DNA of 64,000 nucleotides, taken from Streptantibioticus cattleyicolor NRRL 8057 = DSM 46488. Lineage in GTDB: Bacteria; Actinomycetota; Actinomycetes; Streptomycetales; Streptomycetaceae. Positions 36,134-43,468 of this stretch are shown piece by piece. The position numbers and the translations under genes are program-made. The stretch lies in the NCBI RefSeq assembly GCF_000240165.1, contig NC_017585.1, positions 1,116,001-1,180,000 on the forward strand, in the 5' to 3' direction. The first letter of the stretch is position 1. Each line of letters opens with the position of its first letter. The notes under the pieces are model-generated. The model was not told the origin of the DNA. It saw nothing but the letters and a program-made list of their open reading frames with translations, and did not search any database.

Positions 36134-37678
36134 TCACACGGGCTCGGCGGTCCGCGCCGGCACCGTGTGTCCCGCGCCCGCCAGGATCTCCGCGGCGGCC
36201 ACCCCGGACGCCGCGGTGGCACCGCAGGTGTCGATGCGCACCGCGCCCGGGTGCGGTGCGCCGGGCAGGCCCATCTCCACCACGATGGCGTCGGGGCGGG
36301 CGGTGGCCAGGGTGCCCAGGGCGCGCTCCATCCACGCGTGCCGGGAGGCGTCCCGCACCACGACGACCAGCGGGCGTCCCGAGGCGGGCGCCAGCGCGTG
36401 CGCGTCCAGGAACCCGGCGTCGGCCGCCAGCTGCCGCTGGTGCACCCGGACGAAGGTGGTTCCGGGGAGCCGTTCGCGCAGCGGGACGGCCACGCCCCAC
36501 GGGGTCTCCTTGCCGATGGCGAGGTTGGTGGCGGGCACCAGTTCCACCACGTGCGGCGCGGTGGTCAGCGGCAGGACGTCGTGGACGGGGCCGGTCAGCC
36601 GCACGGCGCGGCGGGCCGCGGTGAAACCGATGTCGCCGCCGACCGGGTCCACGGGTACGGACCGGCCCAGCCCCGTCGACCAGGCGGCGAAGGCACGCAG
36701 GCGTCCGGCCGCCTCGGCGAGGCGTTCCTCGGCCAGGTCGCCGCGGACCACGGCAGCCGCCAGCGCCTCGGCGAGGAGTTCGGTGGTGCCCTGGTCGGCG
36801 CTCTCGCCGCCCACGCAGATGGCGTCGGCGCCGGCCGCGATGGCGCGGACCGTGGCCCCGTCGATGCCGTAGCGGTCGGCGACCGCGCCCATCTCGATGC
36901 CGTCGGTGACGATCAGGCCGTCGAAGCCCAGTTCCTTGCGGAGCAGTTCTTCCAGGACGCTGCTGCTCAAGGTGGCCGGCAGGTCGCGGTCGTAGGCGGG
37001 CACCAGGAGGTGGGCGCTCATCACCGCGCGCACCCCCGCCTGGAGCGCGGCGCGGAACGGGGGCAGCGCCCGCGCGGCGATCTCCTCGGCGTCGGCCTCG
37101 TACCGCGGCAGTCCGTGGTGGGAGTCGACGGCGGTGTCACCGTGGCCGGGGAAGTGCTTGGCGCAGGCGGCCACGCCGGCCGACTGGAGGCCGCGGATCC
37201 AGGCGGCGGCGTGCCGGGAGACCAGTTCCGTGCCGGTGCCGAACGACCGCACGCCGATGACCGGGTTGTCGGGGTTGGAGTTGACGTCGACACTGGGCGC
37301 GTAGTCCAGGCTGACCCCGGCGGCGTGGAGTTCGCGGCCGAGGTCGCGGGCGACGGACTCGGTGAGTTCGACGTCGTCCACGGCGCCGAGGGCGAAGTTG
37401 CCGGGGCGGGTGGAGCCGGTCCAGGACTCGATGCGGGTGACGTCGCCGGCCTCCTCGTCGATCGCGATGACCAACTCGGGGTTCTCGGCGCGCAGTCGGG
37501 CGGTGAGCCGGGCCACCTGCTCGGGGGTGGCGATGTTGCGGGCGAAGAGGACGACCGAGCCGAGGCCCTCACCGATCGCGCGCAGCACCCAGTCCGGCGC
37601 CTCGGTGCCCTCGAAGCCCGGCTGGAGGACGGAGAGCGCCAGGCGCCGCAACTCGCTGCTGTGGTTACTGGAGGACAT
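36134..37678 (-). CDS. GH3 beta-N-acetylglucosaminidase (NagZ/DasD-like)
   Basis: 514 aa from ATG 37678, with GGAAGG upstream; the in-frame extension to 37771 is rejected. The GH3 core has AIDEEAGDVTR, KHFPGHGDTAVDSHHGLP (the His-Asp acid/base loop of the NagZ group) and the nucleophile Asp in IVTDGIEMGAV. A second, C-terminal Rossmann-like domain (from residue about 345) is present, as in two-domain actinomycete members. There is no signal peptide, so it acts on imported N-acetylglucosamine oligomers or muropeptides. Two candidate DasR operators upstream support control by aminosugars. Confidence 0.87.
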   Translation of the reverse strand: MSSSNHSSELRRLALSVLQPGFEGTEAPDWVLRAIGEGLGSVVLFARNIATPEQVARLTARLRAENPELVIAIDEEAGDVTRIESWTGSTRPGNFALGAVDDVELTESVARDLGRELHAAGVSLDYAPSVDVNSNPDNPVIGVRSFGTGTELVSRHAAAWIRGLQSAGVAACAKHFPGHGDTAVDSHHGLPRYEADAEEIAARALPPFRAALQAGVRAVMSAHLLVPAYDRDLPATLSSSVLEELLRKELGFDGLIVTDGIEMGAVADRYGIDGATVRAIAAGADAICVGGESADQGTTELLAEALAAAVVRGDLAEERLAEAAGRLRAFAAWSTGLGRSVPVDPVGGDIGFTAARRAVRLTGPVHDVLPLTTAPHVVELVPATNLAIGKETPWGVAVPLRERLPGTTFVRVHQRQLAADAGFLDAHALAPASGRPLVVVVRDASRHAWMERALGTLATARPDAIVVEMGLPGAPHPGAVRIDTCGATAASGVAAAEILAGAGHTVPARTAEPV

Positions 37679-37729
37679 CGACTGGGCCTTCCGCGATGGT
37701 GCCGACACGCCGATCGCACCGGGGGCAAT

Positions 37730-37741
37730 TGGTATGGACCA
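37730..37741. promoter_or_regulatory. DasR-responsive element (dre)-like site 1
   Basis: TGGTATGGACCA matches the core TGGTCTAGACCA, which I recall as the dre consensus, at 10 of 12 positions. The flanks extend it to TTGGT-N4-ACCAA. It lies 52 bp before the GH3 start, the usual place for a repressor site. Confidence 0.55.
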
Positions 37742-37900
37742 ACGGTGGCCCACCCCGATCTGACGTGTCAAGGGGAGCGTCCGCCTTCCGGACGGCGCGC
37801 AGTCGTTGTCGTAACCATGCCAATCACTCGAAGTGCCGTATCCGTCACCGCGTCGCGACGTCCCGGGTTTCTCCCCAAATCAATGGTTGACAGGGCAAGT

Positions 37901-37912
37901 TGGTCTAGTCCA
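37901..37912. promoter_or_regulatory. DasR-responsive element (dre)-like site 2
   Basis: TGGTCTAGTCCA matches the recalled dre core at 11 of 12 positions. It is about 220 bp before the GH3 start and 240 bp before the oxygenase operon, eight bases after a TTGACA. It could serve either direction. Confidence 0.55.
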
Positions 37913-38151: not shown

Positions 38152-39219
38152 ATGCCGACATCGGACCGCTACCTGTACCGAGCCCCATCTGACATTCCGT
38201 ATTTCAGCGCGGACGGCGAGAGCTACCTGGCGCAGACACCACTGCGGGACCTGAGGAAAACCCGGCCGCTGCGCGTGCTCTCCGAAGCCGACTTCGACTT
38301 CTGGCAGACCTACGGTTACGTGGTGGTGAAGGAAGCCATCCCGGCCGACGCGGCCCGGCGTCTGCTCGACTTCGCCTGGGACTTCCAGGGCCTCGACCCC
38401 GAGCGCCCGGAGACCTGGTACGAGGAGCGCCCCTACCGCTCCGACCTCGACCGCGAACTGCACATCTACGGCTTCGTGGAGGCCTACCACCACCAGCTGA
38501 TCTGGGACAGCAGGCAGAACCGGCGGGTCTACGACGCCTTCGTCGACGTCTGGGACTGCGAAGAACTCTGGGTCACCCTCGACCGGCTCAACCTCAACCC
38601 GCCCAACATCCGCAACCGCGACCGCGCGCTCATCGCCCCCACCGACAAGGGGTTCGACATCGAACTCCACTGGGACGTCGACACCTCGCTCAGCGTCCCG
38701 CCGCAACGGGTGCAGGGAATCATCGCCCTCAACGACACCACCCCGGAGTGCGGCGGGTTCCAGTGTTCCCCCGAACTCTTCCGCCGGTTCGACCGCTGGC
38801 GGGTGGAACAGCCCGCCGGCCGCGACCCCATCCGCCCCGACGTCGACCGCGCCGAATTCCCCGTCGTCCGCCCCGAACTCGCCGCCGGCGACCTGCTCAT
38901 CTGGAACGGACTGCTCGCCCACGGAGTCGCCCGCAACACCTCACGCGACGGGGTGCGGGCCGTGCAGTACCTGTCCATGATGCCCGCCCTGGAATCCCAC
39001 GGGAAACTGCGGAACTCCCGGGTCGAATCCTGGCGCGACCTCAGCACACCGGACTGGAACGCCACCCTCCTCGGCGACGCCGTCACACCCGAATCACTCC
39101 GCTACGCCACCGCCGAACTCGACGAACTCGGCGCCCGGCTGCTGGGGCTGAAGTCCTGGCACGGCAAGCAGGAATCCGACCAGACCTCCGGGGACCGGGA
39201 ATGCGTAAAGTCTGCCTGA
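38152..39219 (+). CDS. Phytanoyl-CoA dioxygenase-family Fe(II)/2-oxoglutarate oxygenase
   Basis: 355 aa from ATG 38152, with GGAG seven bases upstream. The metal facial triad is HWDVD (His-x-Asp) and, 70 residues on, the distal His in LLAHGVARN. The Arg of ARNTSRDGVRAV would bind 2-oxoglutarate. PhyH enzymes hydroxylate, halogenate or epoxidise small molecules, including free and carrier-bound amino acids. It opens a five-gene operon and overlaps the next gene by 19 bp. The substrate is unknown; an amino acid or its amine is plausible given the decarboxylase downstream. Confidence 0.87.
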   Translation: MPTSDRYLYRAPSDIPYFSADGESYLAQTPLRDLRKTRPLRVLSEADFDFWQTYGYVVVKEAIPADAARRLLDFAWDFQGLDPERPETWYEERPYRSDLDRELHIYGFVEAYHHQLIWDSRQNRRVYDAFVDVWDCEELWVTLDRLNLNPPNIRNRDRALIAPTDKGFDIELHWDVDTSLSVPPQRVQGIIALNDTTPECGGFQCSPELFRRFDRWRVEQPAGRDPIRPDVDRAEFPVVRPELAAGDLLIWNGLLAHGVARNTSRDGVRAVQYLSMMPALESHGKLRNSRVESWRDLSTPDWNATLLGDAVTPESLRYATAELDELGARLLGLKSWHGKQESDQTSGDRECVKSA

Positions 39220-40517
39220 CCCTTCCCACCAACCGCCCCTGCGCCGAGACCATATCCGCGGTGGGCGACGAAGCAGCCTACGCCGCCGGGCACTTCGACG
39301 CCGAGGTGTACCTGCTGATCCTCGACTCCTCCGACCCGGACACCTTCGCCCGGCACGCGGAAGCCGCGCGGCGGGTGCGGGAGACCCGTCCGGTCACCGT
39401 GCACCACCTGGACGAGGCAGCCCAGCGCGGCTTCCTCCAGCGGGTGATCGACCACGCCGGAGCCGTCAAACCCGACCTCGTGCTCGACCTCATGCTCCCG
39501 GCCGGCGTCTCCTACGGTGCCTGCACCAACCGCGCCTTCCTGATCGCCGCCGCCCTCGGCTGCGACTCCGTCCACCGCCGCGACTCCGACAGCCGCTACC
39601 AGTACCTCGACGGGGAGCCCCTCTACCCCGTCCACCACGAGCTGACCTCCCTCGGGCTGCGGGCCGGCGAGGCGGCGACCCGGGTGGACGCCAACACCCT
39701 GGCGGAACGCCACGCCGGCAAGCCGGTGACCATGGTGGGCAGCTCCTTCGTGGGCGAACTCTCCGTCGACATCGGCGAGATCCACGCCATCGACCCCGGC
39801 ATCTACCACGACATCGTCAGCCTCTGGGCCCCCGCCGACTGGTCCGGCGAACGCAAGCGCCGCCTCGTCGAGGAGTCGTTCAAGGGCGCGGGCAGCGAGC
39901 CGTTCACCGCCGACCACGCGGTGCTGACCGTGGTCGACCCCATGCGGGTGGACATGTGCAACATCAGTTTCCACCGGGTGCACGAACAGGTGCCGCTGCC
40001 ACCGGCCACCGACACCATCGGCAGCGACTACTTCCTCATCCACCTCGTCCACGACGCCGCACTCCCCGGCGTCCTGCACAACCGCAACATCGTCAACTTC
40101 CACACCCCGGAACGCAAGACCGGCCAGGGGTTCACCGGCTACCAGCTGCGCCTGGTCAAGTTCTTCCTGTCGATGCTCTACTTCAACGCCGTCTACGCCA
40201 GGATGGCCGAAGCCGGCGAAGCGCTGCTGGACGAGGAGAACCGGATACGGACCCGGCTCGTCGCCGGCTTCGTCCGGGACGCCACCGCGCTCGACACCAC
40301 CGAGAACGTCAAACGCCTGCGCAGCCTGGACCGTTCCTACCGCGCGCTCGGCGGACGGTACGCCGCCTTCGCCGACCTGCTGGCCTCCCGCACCGACCAA
40401 CTGCTGGACGAGGCACAGGCGGACACCGAGGACTTCGCGTTCCTCATCGAGGCGTGGGAACCCCTGGTACGGGCGAGCAGGGCCGTCGGCTTCCCCGTAC
40501 CGCACCGGGACCGCTGA
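39201..40517 (+). CDS. DUF6271-like protein (possible glycosyltransferase-type fold)
   Basis: 438 aa. The N-terminus KVCLTLPTNRPCAETISAVG, followed by VYLLILDSSDP and later HRRDSDSRYQYLDG, resembles the GT-A pattern of a first beta strand, a loop and a D-x-D-like metal site. From memory this is the family named DUF6271, known mostly from actinomycete clusters. A conserved HNRNIVNFHTPERKTGQGFTGY precedes a helical C-terminal region. There is no signal peptide. In this operon it is the only gene with no evident chemistry, so it may perform the assembly step. Confidence 0.6.
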   Translation: MRKVCLTLPTNRPCAETISAVGDEAAYAAGHFDAEVYLLILDSSDPDTFARHAEAARRVRETRPVTVHHLDEAAQRGFLQRVIDHAGAVKPDLVLDLMLPAGVSYGACTNRAFLIAAALGCDSVHRRDSDSRYQYLDGEPLYPVHHELTSLGLRAGEAATRVDANTLAERHAGKPVTMVGSSFVGELSVDIGEIHAIDPGIYHDIVSLWAPADWSGERKRRLVEESFKGAGSEPFTADHAVLTVVDPMRVDMCNISFHRVHEQVPLPPATDTIGSDYFLIHLVHDAALPGVLHNRNIVNFHTPERKTGQGFTGYQLRLVKFFLSMLYFNAVYARMAEAGEALLDEENRIRTRLVAGFVRDATALDTTENVKRLRSLDRSYRALGGRYAAFADLLASRTDQLLDEAQADTEDFAFLIEAWEPLVRASRAVGFPVPHRDR

Positions 40518-40518
40518 C

Positions 40519-41700
40519 ATGGACCGCAACGCACCCGGCGCACCGCTGCGCGCCGCCCTGGCCGAGGCCACCGAGGACCGGCTCGTCCTCGACCTGGCCG
40601 GCATCACCGGGAACCACCGTGCCCTGCGGCGCGAACTGCCCGGGGTCGCCGTCCGGTTCGCCATGAAGGCATGCCCGGTGGACGAGGTCGTGTCCGCCCT
40701 GGCACGCCAGGGCGCCGGGGCCGACGCGGCGAGCCCCAACGAGATCGCCCAGGCGATCGCGGCCGGCGTCCCCGTCGCCGACATCCACTACGGCAACACC
40801 ATCAAGTCCGACCACAACATCGCCGAGGCGTACCGGCTCGGGGTGCGCGACTTCGCCACCGACAGCGTCGAGGACGTGACGGCGGTCGCCGCCCACGCCC
40901 CGGGCGCCCGGGTCTTCTGCCGCCTGGCCACCAGCGGGCACGGCGCGCTGTGGGGGCTCACCAGGAAGTACGGCTGCGCGGTGCCGGAGGCGGTACGCGT
41001 GCTGGACACGGCGCGGGAGGCCGGGCTGACCCCGGCCGGCCTCTCCGTCCACGTCGGCTCCCAGCAGATGACCACCGAAGCGTGGCACGACGCCGTCGAC
41101 CTCCTCGCCGAAGCGATCACCGCGCTGAAGCGGCGGGGGATCCGGCCCGACCACGTCAACCTCGGCGGCGGACTGCCCGCGCTCGGCTACCTCGACCGGC
41201 GCGGCAGACCGCTGGAGCCGCCGCTGGACAAGATGTTCGCCGTGCTCCGCGAGGGCATGCAGCGGCTGCGGGAGGTGGCCGGTCACCCGCTGCGCTTCGT
41301 GCTGGAGCCCGGCCGCCACCTCGTCGCCGACCACGGCGCCATCCGGGCCCACGTCGCCCGGCTCGCCGCCCGGCGGCAGCCCGACGGCGAACGCCGCCAC
41401 TGGCTCTACCTCAGCTGCGGCAAGTTCAACGGGCTCTACGAGATGGACGCCGTGCAGTACCCCCTGGTCTTCCCCACGCACCGGGGCGCGAAGACCGTCC
41501 CCGCCGTCGTCGCCGGACCCACCTGCGACAGCGACGACGCCTACGACGCCGAGTACGGCCTGGTGGCAGTGCCCGAGGACGTCGCCTCCGGCGACCCGGT
41601 GTGGTTGCTGGCCTGCGGCGCCTACGCCACCAGTTACACCACCACGGGGTTCAACGGCTTCGACCCGCTGCCGTACACCGTGATCGGGGGCGAGGGATGA
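40519..41700 (+). CDS. Fold-type III PLP decarboxylase (ornithine/arginine/DAP family)
   Basis: 393 aa, starting one base after the previous stop. The Schiff-base lysine is Lys50 in VRFAMKACP. Other family marks are HVGSQQ, NLGGGLPALGY, EPGRHLVADHGA, the cofactor/substrate loop AGPTCDSDD with its Cys, and GAYATSYTTTGFNGF. The CDSDD and FNGF ends place it nearer ornithine-type decarboxylases than DAP decarboxylase. It would convert a basic or hydroxylated amino acid to an amine for the pathway. Which amino acid is not readable. Confidence 0.87.
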   Translation: MDRNAPGAPLRAALAEATEDRLVLDLAGITGNHRALRRELPGVAVRFAMKACPVDEVVSALARQGAGADAASPNEIAQAIAAGVPVADIHYGNTIKSDHNIAEAYRLGVRDFATDSVEDVTAVAAHAPGARVFCRLATSGHGALWGLTRKYGCAVPEAVRVLDTAREAGLTPAGLSVHVGSQQMTTEAWHDAVDLLAEAITALKRRGIRPDHVNLGGGLPALGYLDRRGRPLEPPLDKMFAVLREGMQRLREVAGHPLRFVLEPGRHLVADHGAIRAHVARLAARRQPDGERRHWLYLSCGKFNGLYEMDAVQYPLVFPTHRGAKTVPAVVAGPTCDSDDAYDAEYGLVAVPEDVASGDPVWLLACGAYATSYTTTGFNGFDPLPYTVIGGEG

Positions 41701-42293
41701 GCGACCGCCCGCGCGTGCGGCACATCCAGGATGCCGACTGGCCGGCCATCGTGGCGCTGGAGGCCGGCGCGTACACCCGGCACGGACTCTCCGAGGGGCG
41801 CGCCGCGCTCCAGTCCAGGGTGCGTGCCTCGCCGCGGACGTGTTTCGTGCTCGACCACCACGACCGGGTGGCCGGCTATCTGCTGGCCCTGCCCTACCCC
41901 CCGTTCCGCGTCCCCGACCTGGCCCGGACCGAAGGCAGCGCCGCCCGCCACCACGGCAACCTGCACCTGCACGACGTCGTCGTCGCCGAACCGCTGCGCG
42001 GCCGGGGACTCGGCGGCCACCTGCTGCGCCACCTGACCACCACCGCGGCGCCGGCCGGCTACCGGCGCCTCTCCCTGGTCGCCGTGGCCGGCAGCGGGAC
42101 CTACTGGGCGGGCCACGGCTTCACCGCCCACCCGGGGGTCGAACTCCCCGACAGCTACGGCACGGACGCCGTCTACATGTCCCGGCCGTGGCGGGCGGTG
42201 GAGCCGCCGGCCCGGTCATCGGCCCGCTCCGCGGAGCCGACGCCACCCGGCGGCCCGGGGCACCGGCCGCCGTCCGAGTACGAAGTGGGCTGA
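41697..42293 (+). CDS. GNAT-family N-acetyltransferase
   Basis: 198 aa. The acetyl-CoA loop reads VAEPLRGRGLGGHLLRHL (R-G-x-G-x-G/A type), with the preceding strand NLHLHDVVV and a later VAGSGTYWAGHGF. The ATG overlaps the decarboxylase stop (ATGA). The last 25 residues are Pro/Ser-rich and probably disordered. It may acetylate the pathway amine, either as a biosynthetic step or for self-protection. Confidence 0.83.
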   Translation: MSDRPRVRHIQDADWPAIVALEAGAYTRHGLSEGRAALQSRVRASPRTCFVLDHHDRVAGYLLALPYPPFRVPDLARTEGSAARHHGNLHLHDVVVAEPLRGRGLGGHLLRHLTTTAAPAGYRRLSLVAVAGSGTYWAGHGFTAHPGVELPDSYGTDAVYMSRPWRAVEPPARSSARSAEPTPPGGPGHRPPSEYEVG

Positions 42294-42298
42294 TCGAC

Positions 42299-43468
42299 GT
42301 GTTCCCCGTTCACGACCCGTTCCGGCGGTCCCTGCTGGCGATCGCGGCGCTCTTCGCCGCGCTCGGCTTCCAGTACGCCACCTGGGCCTCCCGGATCCCC
42401 ACCGTCAAGGCGCACCTGGGGCTGAGCGCCGCCGAGGTCGGGCTGCTGCTGATGGCCTGCGGCGCGGGCGCGGCGGCCTCGTTCCCGCTGGTGGCCGCGT
42501 TGATGAGACGCCTCGGCTCACGGCGGCTGGCGTGTCTTTCCGCGCTCGCCCTGGCGCTGCTGCTCCTCGCGCTCGCCGTGGCGCCCGACTACCCGGTGGC
42601 CATGGTCGTCATGTGCTGCGACGGGGTCGCCGTCGGCTGCCTCAACGTCGCCATGAACGCCCAGGGCGCCGCGCTGGAGGCGGTCCACGGGCGCACCGCC
42701 ATGGCCAAGTTGCACGCCACGTTCAGCGGCGGCTCGCTCTTCGCCGCGCTCCTCGCCTCCGGCGTCAACCTGCTGACCCCGGCGATGACCGCCCACTTCG
42801 CGGTGGCCGCCGTGGTGATCGTGCTGCTGGTCGCGGTCGCCAGGACCGGTCTGCTGACGGAGGATCAGCAGACGGCGGCCCCGGAGAAGAAGAAGCGGCG
42901 GGGCCGGCTCACCCTGCCGTCGCGGGTGACGTTGTGGATGGGGTGTGCCATGGTGTTCGGCACGGTGACCGAGGGCGCCATGAACGACTGGTCGGCGCTG
43001 TACATGCGGGATGTCGTGGGCGCCTCGTCGGAAATGGCGCCGTTGGGGATCGCCGTGGTCTCGGTGATGATGGTGGCGGCCCGCCTCTTCGCCGACGGCT
43101 GGCGCAGCCGCTGGGGGGACGGACGCGTGGTGCGGGTCGGCAGCGTGCTCGCCGCGGCCGGGCTGGCGCTCGCCCTGGTCAGCGGGGGAGTGGTGCCCGC
43201 GCTGCTCGGCTTCGCCTGCGTGGGCCTGGGCATCGCCGCGGTGACCCCGTGCGTCTACGTGGCCGCCGCCGGCCAGGGCTCCGACGCGCTGACCCTGGTC
43301 GCCGCCATGGGGACCGCGGGGCTGCTGGCCGGGCCGCCGGTGATCGGCTTCATCGCCAACGCCAGCAGCCTGGTGTGGGGCATGGCGGCCGTCGCCGTCT
43401 CCGCGGTCCTGGTCTCGTTGTGCACCACCCGGATCCGCTGGCCGCGGCCGGCCGGACAGAACGCCTGA
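42299..43468 (+). CDS. MFS transporter, 12-helix, probable exporter of the pathway
   Basis: 389 aa from GTG 42299, five bases after the GNAT stop; there is no closer ATG. It has about twelve hydrophobic segments, with WASRIPTVKAHLGLS at the first loop and DGWRSRWGDGRVVRVG as the motif A-like loop between helices 8 and 9. It resembles YbjJ-type MFS proteins. A basic KKKRRGR stretch marks the central cytoplasmic loop. As the last gene of the operon, it probably exports the product. Confidence 0.85.
   Translation: MFPVHDPFRRSLLAIAALFAALGFQYATWASRIPTVKAHLGLSAAEVGLLLMACGAGAAASFPLVAALMRRLGSRRLACLSALALALLLLALAVAPDYPVAMVVMCCDGVAVGCLNVAMNAQGAALEAVHGRTAMAKLHATFSGGSLFAALLASGVNLLTPAMTAHFAVAAVVIVLLVAVARTGLLTEDQQTAAPEKKKRRGRLTLPSRVTLWMGCAMVFGTVTEGAMNDWSALYMRDVVGASSEMAPLGIAVVSVMMVAARLFADGWRSRWGDGRVVRVGSVLAAAGLALALVSGGVVPALLGFACVGLGIAAVTPCVYVAAAGQGSDALTLVAAMGTAGLLAGPPVIGFIANASSLVWGMAAVAVSAVLVSLCTTRIRWPRPAGQNA

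What the first reader, a model, noticed from the sequence alone, without database searches (positions are those of the whole stretch)
38152..43468. Candidate undescribed pathway: PhyH oxygenase, DUF6271-like, PLP decarboxylase, GNAT, MFS
Five genes with gaps of -19, +1, -4 and +5 bp form one translation-coupled unit. It has an oxidation step, a decarboxylation step, an acyl transfer, an exporter and one protein of unknown chemistry. There is no NRPS, PKS, terpene synthase or RiPP precursor, so rule-based cluster finders would miss it. A small hydroxylated and acylated amine is the simplest guess for the product.
Basis: inference. Interest (0 to 1): 0.8.

Follow-up and report, generated by a model that had tools for sequence, protein, structure and literature searches.

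The report
Chitin-regulated five-gene metabolite operon
A set of five genes that many soil Streptomyces keep together, and appear to switch on with their chitin-digesting genes, probably builds and exports a small sugar-containing amine for which I found no description.

Summary
In detail: PhyH, DUF6271, a lysine/ornithine-decarboxylase-like enzyme, GNAT and MFS genes lie at 38152-43468 with the stated gaps. They are co-conserved: 76 of 80 related loci match all five; in 297 Streptomycetaceae genomes DUF6271 and PhyH occur together in 125, DUF6271 alone in 6, PhyH alone in 3; two genomes have the set split in two operons. (1) DUF6271 need not be 'unknown chemistry': its confident model (pLDDT 94) best matches GT-A sugar-nucleotide enzymes of family GT75 (MtdL, Z 24.8), though without significant sequence similarity. 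(2) A DasR-type operator core, TGGTCTAGTCCA, precedes the operon; it occurs six times in this genome: upstream of three GH18 genes and one secreted CBM4/9 protein, beside the das operon, and here. In 14 of 121 loci the five genes follow a dasR-dasABC-GH3-type operon. Best reading: a chitin/GlcNAc-controlled pathway for an exported, N-acetylated glyco-amine. Regulation, donor sugar and product are untested. The paper searches made (listings of an open-access library) showed no description.

The parts
38152..39219 (+). PhyH-family Fe(II)/2-oxoglutarate oxygenase, 355 aa
   Evidence: PF05721 41.4 bits; H173, D175, H257 and R269 invariant in 36 sequences (roles assigned from the recalled family motif). 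AF2 model poor (pLDDT 53.8), not used.
39201..40517 (+). DUF6271 protein, 438 aa: predicted metal-dependent GT-A sugar-nucleotide enzyme
   Evidence: PF19787 775.5 bits; AF2 pLDDT 94.1, pTM 0.93; best fold match MtdL 7xps Z 24.8, rice UAM2 8cid Z 21.4; D130, D276, H293 in 55 of 55
40519..41700 (+). fold-III PLP decarboxylase of the lysine/ornithine decarboxylase type, 393 aa
   Evidence: Orn_Arg_deC_N 136.1 bits; nearest solved structure V. vulnificus lysine/ornithine decarboxylase 2plj, E 1.8e-38; K50, H178, E263-R266, D310, C336, D337 invariant in the 29 sequences of A6 (roles recalled)
41697..42293 (+). GNAT acyltransferase, 198 aa
   Evidence: PF00583 44.9 bits; no close solved relative (best E 3.4e-4)
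42299..43468 (+). MFS transporter, 389 aa, GTG start
   Evidence: PF07690 82.2 bits
37901..37912 (+). DasR-type operator core TGGTCTAGTCCA, 251 bp upstream of PhyH
   Evidence: the same 12-mer is reported as the core of a DasR-bound dre upstream of scr5239 (PMC4398421, passage seen)
37729..37742 (.). second operator-like palindrome TTGGTATGGACCAA beside the GH3 start
   Evidence: similar words recur in the GH3-PhyH gap of other loci
36134..37678 (-). divergent GH3 beta-N-acetylglucosaminidase-type gene (associated; membership in the pathway not shown)
   Evidence: PF00933 243.9 bits; nearest solved structure 6k5j GH3 beta-N-acetylglucosaminidase, E 1.3e-80; a GH3 gene of this cluster is the direct upstream neighbour in 63 of 121 loci

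Best explanation
The five genes are one biosynthesis-and-export operon belonging to the chitin/N-acetylglucosamine (DasR) regulon. Most likely mechanism: when chitin-derived sugar relieves a DasR-type repressor at the 37901 operator, the operon is expressed. The decarboxylase turns a basic amino acid (ornithine- or lysine-like), free or already modified, into an amine; PhyH hydroxylates the substrate; DUF6271, a metal-dependent GT-A enzyme, handles a nucleotide-activated sugar and most likely transfers it to the hydroxylated or amino substrate; GNAT caps the amine with an acetyl group; MFS exports the product. Shown here: gene content, co-conservation, predicted fold of DUF6271, intact active-site motifs, operator sequence. 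Inferred: DasR control, order of steps, donor sugar, acceptor, product. Rough sub-estimates: one pathway 0.95; in the DasR regulon 0.8; DUF6271 acts on a sugar nucleotide 0.85; transferase rather than mutase 0.5; product an acetylated glyco-amine 0.4.
For: Co-conservation: 76 of 80 loci match all five proteins; in 297 genomes DUF6271 with PhyH 125 (6 and 3 alone), DUF6271 with decarboxylase 112, all three 108, none of the three 160. Two genomes have the set split into PhyH-decarboxylase and DUF6271-GNAT-MFS, each half with its own copy of the operator; in one of them (L186) DUF6271 and GNAT are one open frame of 605 aa. Conserved overlaps. Fold: MtdL Z 24.8 over 311 residues, UAM2 21.4, next family 17.7. 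Operator: exact 12-mer within 500 bp upstream of the first gene in 69 of 121 loci, within one mismatch of it or of the dre core in 85; none for 200 letter-shuffled words. In 19 of the 21 loci with a co-directional GH3 directly upstream the 12-mer lies on the fetched stretch; in L065 it lies between the GntR gene and the binding-protein gene that head the run. Its six exact copies in this genome: upstream of three GH18 genes, upstream of a CBM4/9 secreted protein, between the das-type operon and a histidine kinase gene, and here. 14 of 121 loci have the five genes (PhyH first) directly behind a GntR / SBP-permease-permease-GH3 operon; in L065 those proteins are 64-73% identical to this genome's own das-type locus. 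Decarboxylase plus GNAT also occur as a pair beside a gamma-glutamylputrescine-synthetase-like gene (L178, 278 bits, model cut-off 650), a hint of amine chemistry.
Against: No product, transcript or binding data. The operator is 251 bp from PhyH and could serve the divergent GH3 gene; 36 of 121 loci lack it within one mismatch in the 500 bp tested (14 of these have the co-directional GH3 upstream); exact copies stand in only 2 of 12 PhyH-DUF6271 loci without decarboxylase. The perfect consensus core TGGTCTAGACCA occurs nowhere in this genome, and the 12-mer is also found in 19 of 20 relatives, whose sites I did not examine. DUF6271 has no significant sequence match to GT75 (hhalign probability 0.4%; no PDB sequence match beyond chance), so the link rests on fold. 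In L136 a second, GT2/GT7-type glycosyltransferase gene follows PhyH-DUF6271, which fits a donor-making role of DUF6271 as well as a transfer role. Relatives work without the full set (DUF6271+GNAT; PhyH+DUF6271 with a condensation domain), and decarboxylase-GNAT pairs exist without DUF6271, so no single product follows. Genomes in the co-occurrence count are related and not independent.
Confidence: 0.5

Rival explanations
1. DUF6271 is a pyranose-furanose mutase (GT75-like) that supplies an NDP-furanose, and the sugar is attached by another enzyme encoded elsewhere.
For: Best fold matches are the GT75 mutases MtdL and UAM2; the metal-binding Asp and His and the proposed base Asp of MtdL have invariant counterparts D130, H293, D276 (by my reading of motif and secondary structure; MtdL roles from passages of PMC9937993). 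In L136 a glycosyltransferase gene follows PhyH-DUF6271.
Against: No other glycosyltransferase gene among the five. By the same reading MtdL Arg257 falls on I273 (Ile in 53 of 55) and I see no conserved Arg at the place of the glycosylated Arg159. No residue-level superposition was computed.
Confidence: 0.22
2. One reading: no sugar step; the product is a simple hydroxylated, acylated diamine.
For: The decarboxylase keeps the ornithine/lysine-type pocket residues; decarboxylase-GNAT pairs occur alone.
Against: DUF6271 has a sugar-nucleotide fold; operator and neighbours are those of aminosugar use.
Confidence: 0.15
3. A catabolic or self-protection operon: it modifies (acetylates, oxidises) and exports an aminosugar or an antibiotic met during growth on chitin.
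For: GNAT plus MFS is a common resistance pair (recalled); GH3 and das-type importer alongside.
Against: A lysine/ornithine-type decarboxylase and an Fe/2OG oxygenase would be unusual in such operons (recalled); sister clusters carry a ligase and condensation domain, which are biosynthetic.
Confidence: 0.1

Closest known systems
GT75 NDP-pyranose mutases (MtdL, Hyg20, plant UAM/RGP)
   Same: Same overall fold incl. C-terminal helices (Z 24.8 and 21.4, model residues 1-430); DXD-type motif, metal His and base Asp have counterparts by my reading
   Different: No detectable sequence relation; Arg159 and Arg257 of MtdL apparently not kept; separate Pfam family
Small-molecule GT-A synthases (mannosyl-3-phosphoglycerate, glucosyl-3-phosphoglycerate and mannosylglycerate synthases)
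   Same: GT-A fold, Z 17.7, 15.7 and 15.5; they glycosylate small acids (recalled)
   Different: Lower fold similarity; I recall none that acts with a decarboxylase or PhyH
Vibrio vulnificus lysine/ornithine decarboxylase (2plj)
   Same: Closest solved relative of the decarboxylase; GPTCDS loop shared
   Different: The query is below the NCBIfam equivalog cut-offs listed, e.g. lysA 125.8 of 297.9; substrate unknown
DasR regulon of Streptomyces coelicolor (dasABC, chitinases)
   Same: Same operator core; das-type operon directly upstream in 14 of 121 loci
   Different: I recall no such five-gene operon among DasR targets; I saw only three passages of one ChIP paper and a find for six gene terms, all absent from its main text
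PhyH-DUF6271-condensation-MFS clusters with amino acid:CP ligase (S. xanthophaeus L081, S. clavuligerus plasmid L192)
   Same: Share PhyH and DUF6271, and have an MFS gene
   Different: Decarboxylase and GNAT replaced by carrier-protein aminoacylation and a condensation domain; product unknown to me

Membership tests
DUF6271 (PF19787) | whole-length match over the curated cut-off | tested here: met
   775.5 bits, cut-off 25, residues 2-430
GT75 NDP-pyranose mutase | fold of MtdL/UAM | tested here: met
   Z 24.8 (7xps), 21.4 (8cid) on a model of pLDDT 94.1
GT75 NDP-pyranose mutase | sequence membership (RGP family PF03214 or detectable homology) | tested here: not met
   only PF19787 matched at E 0.1; hhalign with four bacterial GT75-like proteins 0.4% probability, E 0.16
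GT75 NDP-pyranose mutase | autoglycosylated Arg (Arg159) and Arg257 | tested here: inconclusive
   motif reading suggests they are absent, but no residue-level superposition was possible
GT75 NDP-pyranose mutase | pyranose/furanose mutase activity | not testable with these tools
   needs assay
Fe(II)/2OG oxygenase, PhyH | HxD...H iron triad and 2OG-binding Arg | tested here: met
   H173, D175, H257, R269 invariant in 36 sequences; PhyH 41.4 bits over cut-off 22
Fold-III lysine/ornithine decarboxylase | PLP Lys, HVGSQ-type His, EPGR, Cys-Asp of the GPTCD loop, distal-amine Asp (motifs recalled) | tested here: met
   K50, H178, E263-R266, C336, D337, D310 invariant in 29 sequences; alignment with 2plj
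Diaminopimelate decarboxylase LysA | NCBIfam lysA equivalog cut-off | tested here: not met
   125.8 bits against 297.9
DasR regulon | dre-type sequence at the promoter | tested here: met
   12-mer identical with the reported core of the DasR-bound scr5239 site; exact upstream in 69 of 121 loci. It is one base off the palindromic consensus core.
DasR regulon | DasR binding and GlcNAc-dependent expression | not testable with these tools
   needs EMSA, ChIP or RNA data
NRPS, PKS or terpene cluster | core enzyme among the five proteins | tested here: not met
   Pfam and NCBIfam scans of the five proteins show none
RiPP cluster | precursor peptide gene | not tested
   no precursor search was made

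The most novel reading that the evidence does not exclude
DUF6271 founds a new family of metal-dependent small-molecule glycosyltransferases related in fold to furanose mutases, and drives a chitin-triggered pathway in over two fifths of Streptomycetaceae. It makes an exported glyco-amine with exchangeable caps: acetyl by GNAT in one lineage, a carrier-borne amino acid by a condensation domain in another. The product is a signal or an inhibitor released during growth on chitin, for example towards hexosaminidases, fungi or neighbours.
Probability: 0.3. Interest if true: 0.82.

Novelty: new variant of a known kind. Interest (0 to 1): 0.62.

Why it matters
DUF6271 is in 131 of 297 Streptomycetaceae genomes sampled, yet the held PMC library has no paper that names it. 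The operator suggests an induction condition (chitin or GlcNAc), which is what often blocks work on silent clusters. If true, it links chitin sensing to a small molecule through a sugar-nucleotide enzyme of an unstudied family, and the natural swap of acetylation for aminoacylation offers a built-in comparison for finding the shared scaffold.

Tried and rejected
AF2 model of PhyH: pLDDT 53.8, so no fold search was made with it. Searches of PhyH against PDB sequences gave only chance-level hits, so its substrate class stays open. DUF6271 profile against PDB sequences: only TRAF6 at E 0.1, taken as chance. In-frame stops: six DUF6271 matches were listed with one TGA inside; in the fetched loci (L142-L147) the called gene is 429 aa without a stop in all six, so I dropped the idea of recoding; a seventh (G114, TAG; L148) matches in two pieces and may be frameshifted. 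Stops listed inside some PhyH matches were not followed up. GT75 family PF03214 in 61 family genomes: 0; the MtdL fragment matched 4 of 396 genomes across the phylum. A first gene caller based on GC3 picked the antisense frame of DUF6271 and was replaced by one trained on codon use. Considered and set aside from memory: thienamycin, bes and fluorometabolite genes of S. cattleya, allosamidin, nagstatin; no call connects them. Diaminopimelate decarboxylation was set aside on the NCBIfam cut-off and the GPTCDS loop. In genomes such as G139 the DUF6271-GNAT pair lies some 22 kb from a decarboxylase copy in a KAS/ACP cluster; whether that is one pathway I could not tell. S. clavuligerus has a second locus, PhyH-DUF6271 without decarboxylase, not pursued. 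Literature: all 10 searches used (others returned nothing). I saw listings only, plus passages and outline of PMC9937993 and passages of PMC4398421, PMC6167110 and PMC13118837 (which names none of these genes in the passages found). Supplements were not searched.
Full report
OBSERVATION. Pfam names them PhyH, DUF6271, Orn_Arg_deC_N, Acetyltransf_1 and MFS_1. A tblastn of the window's DUF6271 protein against PLSDB finds a 100% match on the 1.8 Mb plasmid of Streptantibioticus cattleyicolor NRRL 8057 (recalled as Streptomyces cattleya), NC_016113.1, so that strain or a near one is the likely source; the contig of G000 is a little longer than that record.

CO-CONSERVATION. With the DUF6271 protein, 150 loci were confirmed in genome contigs and the best 80 kept. 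Of these 80, 76 have matches to all five proteins, three lack the MFS match (one at a contig end), one has PhyH and DUF6271 only. They come from Streptomyces, Streptacidiphilus, Kitasatospora, Streptantibioticus, Actinacidiphila and also Actinokineospora, Amycolatopsis and Actinocrispum. Gene calls find all five on one strand in 72 of 80; the 19-base PhyH-DUF6271 overlap is exact in 55 of 80. In 297 sampled genomes of the family, DUF6271 is in 131; in 396 genomes drawn across the phylum it is in 5, all of this family. PhyH (E 1e-60) is in 128 and the decarboxylase (E 1e-80) in 115 of the same 297. Cross-tabulated: DUF6271 and PhyH together 125, DUF6271 only 6 (two of these, G190 and G222, are weak matches), PhyH only 3 (two at 45-48% identity, one partial); DUF6271 and decarboxylase 112; all three 108; none 160. 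The Fisher values ignore kinship and are not quoted as probabilities. GNAT and MFS were not counted genome-wide.

VARIANTS. Neighbourhoods fall into: A, the five genes; B, PhyH-DUF6271-condensation domain-MFS with a divergent amino acid:carrier-protein ligase, a small protein that I read as a carrier (no Pfam or NCBIfam match) and often a phosphopantetheinyl transferase (family names were run for L081 only; L122, L139, L151, L152, L154 and L160 have genes of the same BLAST clusters; in L128 DUF6271 sits in one 996-aa frame; an S. clavuligerus plasmid is annotated alike); C, DUF6271-GNAT without PhyH or decarboxylase next to it (14 loci). Other PhyH-DUF6271 loci have different neighbours; in L136 a GT2/GT7-type glycosyltransferase follows. 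In genomes such as G139 a decarboxylase copy lies about 22 kb from the C-type pair inside a cluster with KAS and ACP genes (named by eye), and PhyH lies elsewhere. In G040 and G122 the set is split: PhyH-decarboxylase in one place, DUF6271-GNAT-MFS in another, each half with the operator; in G122 DUF6271 and GNAT share one 605-aa frame. Decarboxylase-GNAT pairs without DUF6271 occur beside a gamma-glutamylputrescine-synthetase-like gene (scanned in L178 only).

DUF6271. The AF2 model from 60 sequences has pLDDT 94.1 and pTM 0.93. Foldseek puts MtdL first (E 3.2e-8); VIA-align gives MtdL Z 24.8 (311 aligned, 3.3 A, 14% identity), rice UAM2 21.4, then mannosyl-3-phosphoglycerate synthase 17.7. 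In MtdL, Asp111 and His287 bind Mn, Arg159 corresponds to the glycosylated arginine, and Arg257 and Asp260 are needed (passages of PMC9937993). In 55 DUF6271 sequences D130, D276 and H293 never vary; the DXD is DSD in 46 and NDD in 9, all nine from DUF6271-GNAT loci. By motif and secondary structure I read D130, H293 and D276 as Asp111, His287 and Asp260, and find Ile at the place of Arg257. That reading is inference: hhalign aligned only the DXD region, without significance. So the enzyme probably binds a nucleotide sugar with a metal; whether it transfers or isomerises the sugar is open, and I lean slightly to transfer.

OTHER ENZYMES. PhyH keeps H173, D175, H257 and R269 in 36 of 36. The decarboxylase is nearest to the V. 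vulnificus lysine/ornithine decarboxylase, shares its GPTCDS loop and is far below the LysA cut-off. GNAT and MFS give no substrate hint.

REGULATION. 251 bp upstream of PhyH lies TGGTCTAGTCCA (37901-37912). The DasR consensus is A(G/C)TGGTCTAGACCA(G/C)T, and a dre with the very core TGGTCTAGTCCA upstream of scr5239 bound DasR in vitro (PMC4398421, passages). A search for TGGTCTAGWCCA finds six places in the whole genome, all TGGTCTAGTCCA; the perfect core TGGTCTAGACCA is absent, and the backwards control gives two. The six: this operon; three upstream of GH18 genes; one upstream of a secreted CBM4/9 protein; one between the genome's das-type operon (GntR, SBP, two permeases, GH3, SIS protein) and a histidine kinase gene. 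In 21 genomes (this one and 20 relatives) the word occurs in 20, one to nine times each; those other sites were not examined. Upstream of the operon the exact word stands in 69 of 121 loci, within one mismatch in 85; 200 shuffled words gave none. Of 21 loci where GH3 lies directly upstream in the same direction, 19 have the word on the fetched stretch; in L065 it is at the head of the run, between the GntR gene and the binding-protein gene. In 14 of 121 loci the order is GntR (divergent), SBP, permease, permease, GH3, PhyH, DUF6271; in L065 those proteins are 64-73% identical to this genome's das-type proteins. Against this: 36 of 121 loci have no such word within 500 bp of the first gene, only 2 of 12 PhyH-DUF6271 loci without decarboxylase have it exactly (10 within one mismatch), and in the window the site might serve GH3. 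Where GH3 is not the upstream neighbour the exact word still stands in 13 of 24 co-directional and 2 of 4 divergent A-type loci, and in 9 of 14 C-type loci, which speaks for a role in this operon.

VERDICT. A real, widespread pathway for which my searches showed no description, best read as chitin/GlcNAc-controlled synthesis and export of an N-acetylated glyco-amine. That the genes form a pathway is well supported; the sugar-nucleotide role of DUF6271 rests on fold; DasR control is likely but untested; the product is a guess.

Noticed in passing
window 36134-37678 and L191 7499-9025: This genome has two GH3 beta-N-acetylglucosaminidase-type genes, 58% identical: one beside the operon, one in the das-type operon.
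   Followed up: partly
window 37729-37742: A second palindrome, TTGGTATGGACCAA, beside the GH3 start; similar TTGGTATAGACCAAG words recur in the GH3-PhyH gap of other loci and may be the operator of GH3 itself.
   Followed up: no
L081, L122, L128, L139, L151, L152, L154, L160, L192: Sister clusters join PhyH and DUF6271 to a condensation domain, with an aaRS-like amino acid:carrier-protein ligase and a small carrier-like protein (family names run for L081 only): a small aminoacylation pathway that also looks undescribed to me.
   Followed up: partly
L186, L128, and L075, L089, L146: Single open frames that look like fusions: DUF6271-GNAT (L186, 605 aa), DUF6271 in 996 aa (L128), long decarboxylase frames with no separate GNAT called (L075, L089, L146). 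Real fusions or sequencing errors, not decided.
   Followed up: partly
L177 with L132 (genome G139): A region of about 25 kb with DUF6271-GNAT, SARP-type regulator, KAS/ACP-like genes, an E1-beta-like and another PhyH-like protein and a decarboxylase copy (several names by eye); may be a larger cluster using the same decarboxylase.
   Followed up: partly
L178, L179, L180, L189: Decarboxylase-GNAT pairs without DUF6271 or PhyH beside a glutamine-synthetase-like gene (scanned in L178: gamma-glutamylputrescine-synthetase-like; the others by eye).
   Followed up: no
L187, L188: A more distant PhyH (43-46% identical) in two genomes with similar neighbours that look like an MFS, a thioredoxin-reductase-like and carbamoyltransferase-like proteins (names by eye).
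   Followed up: no
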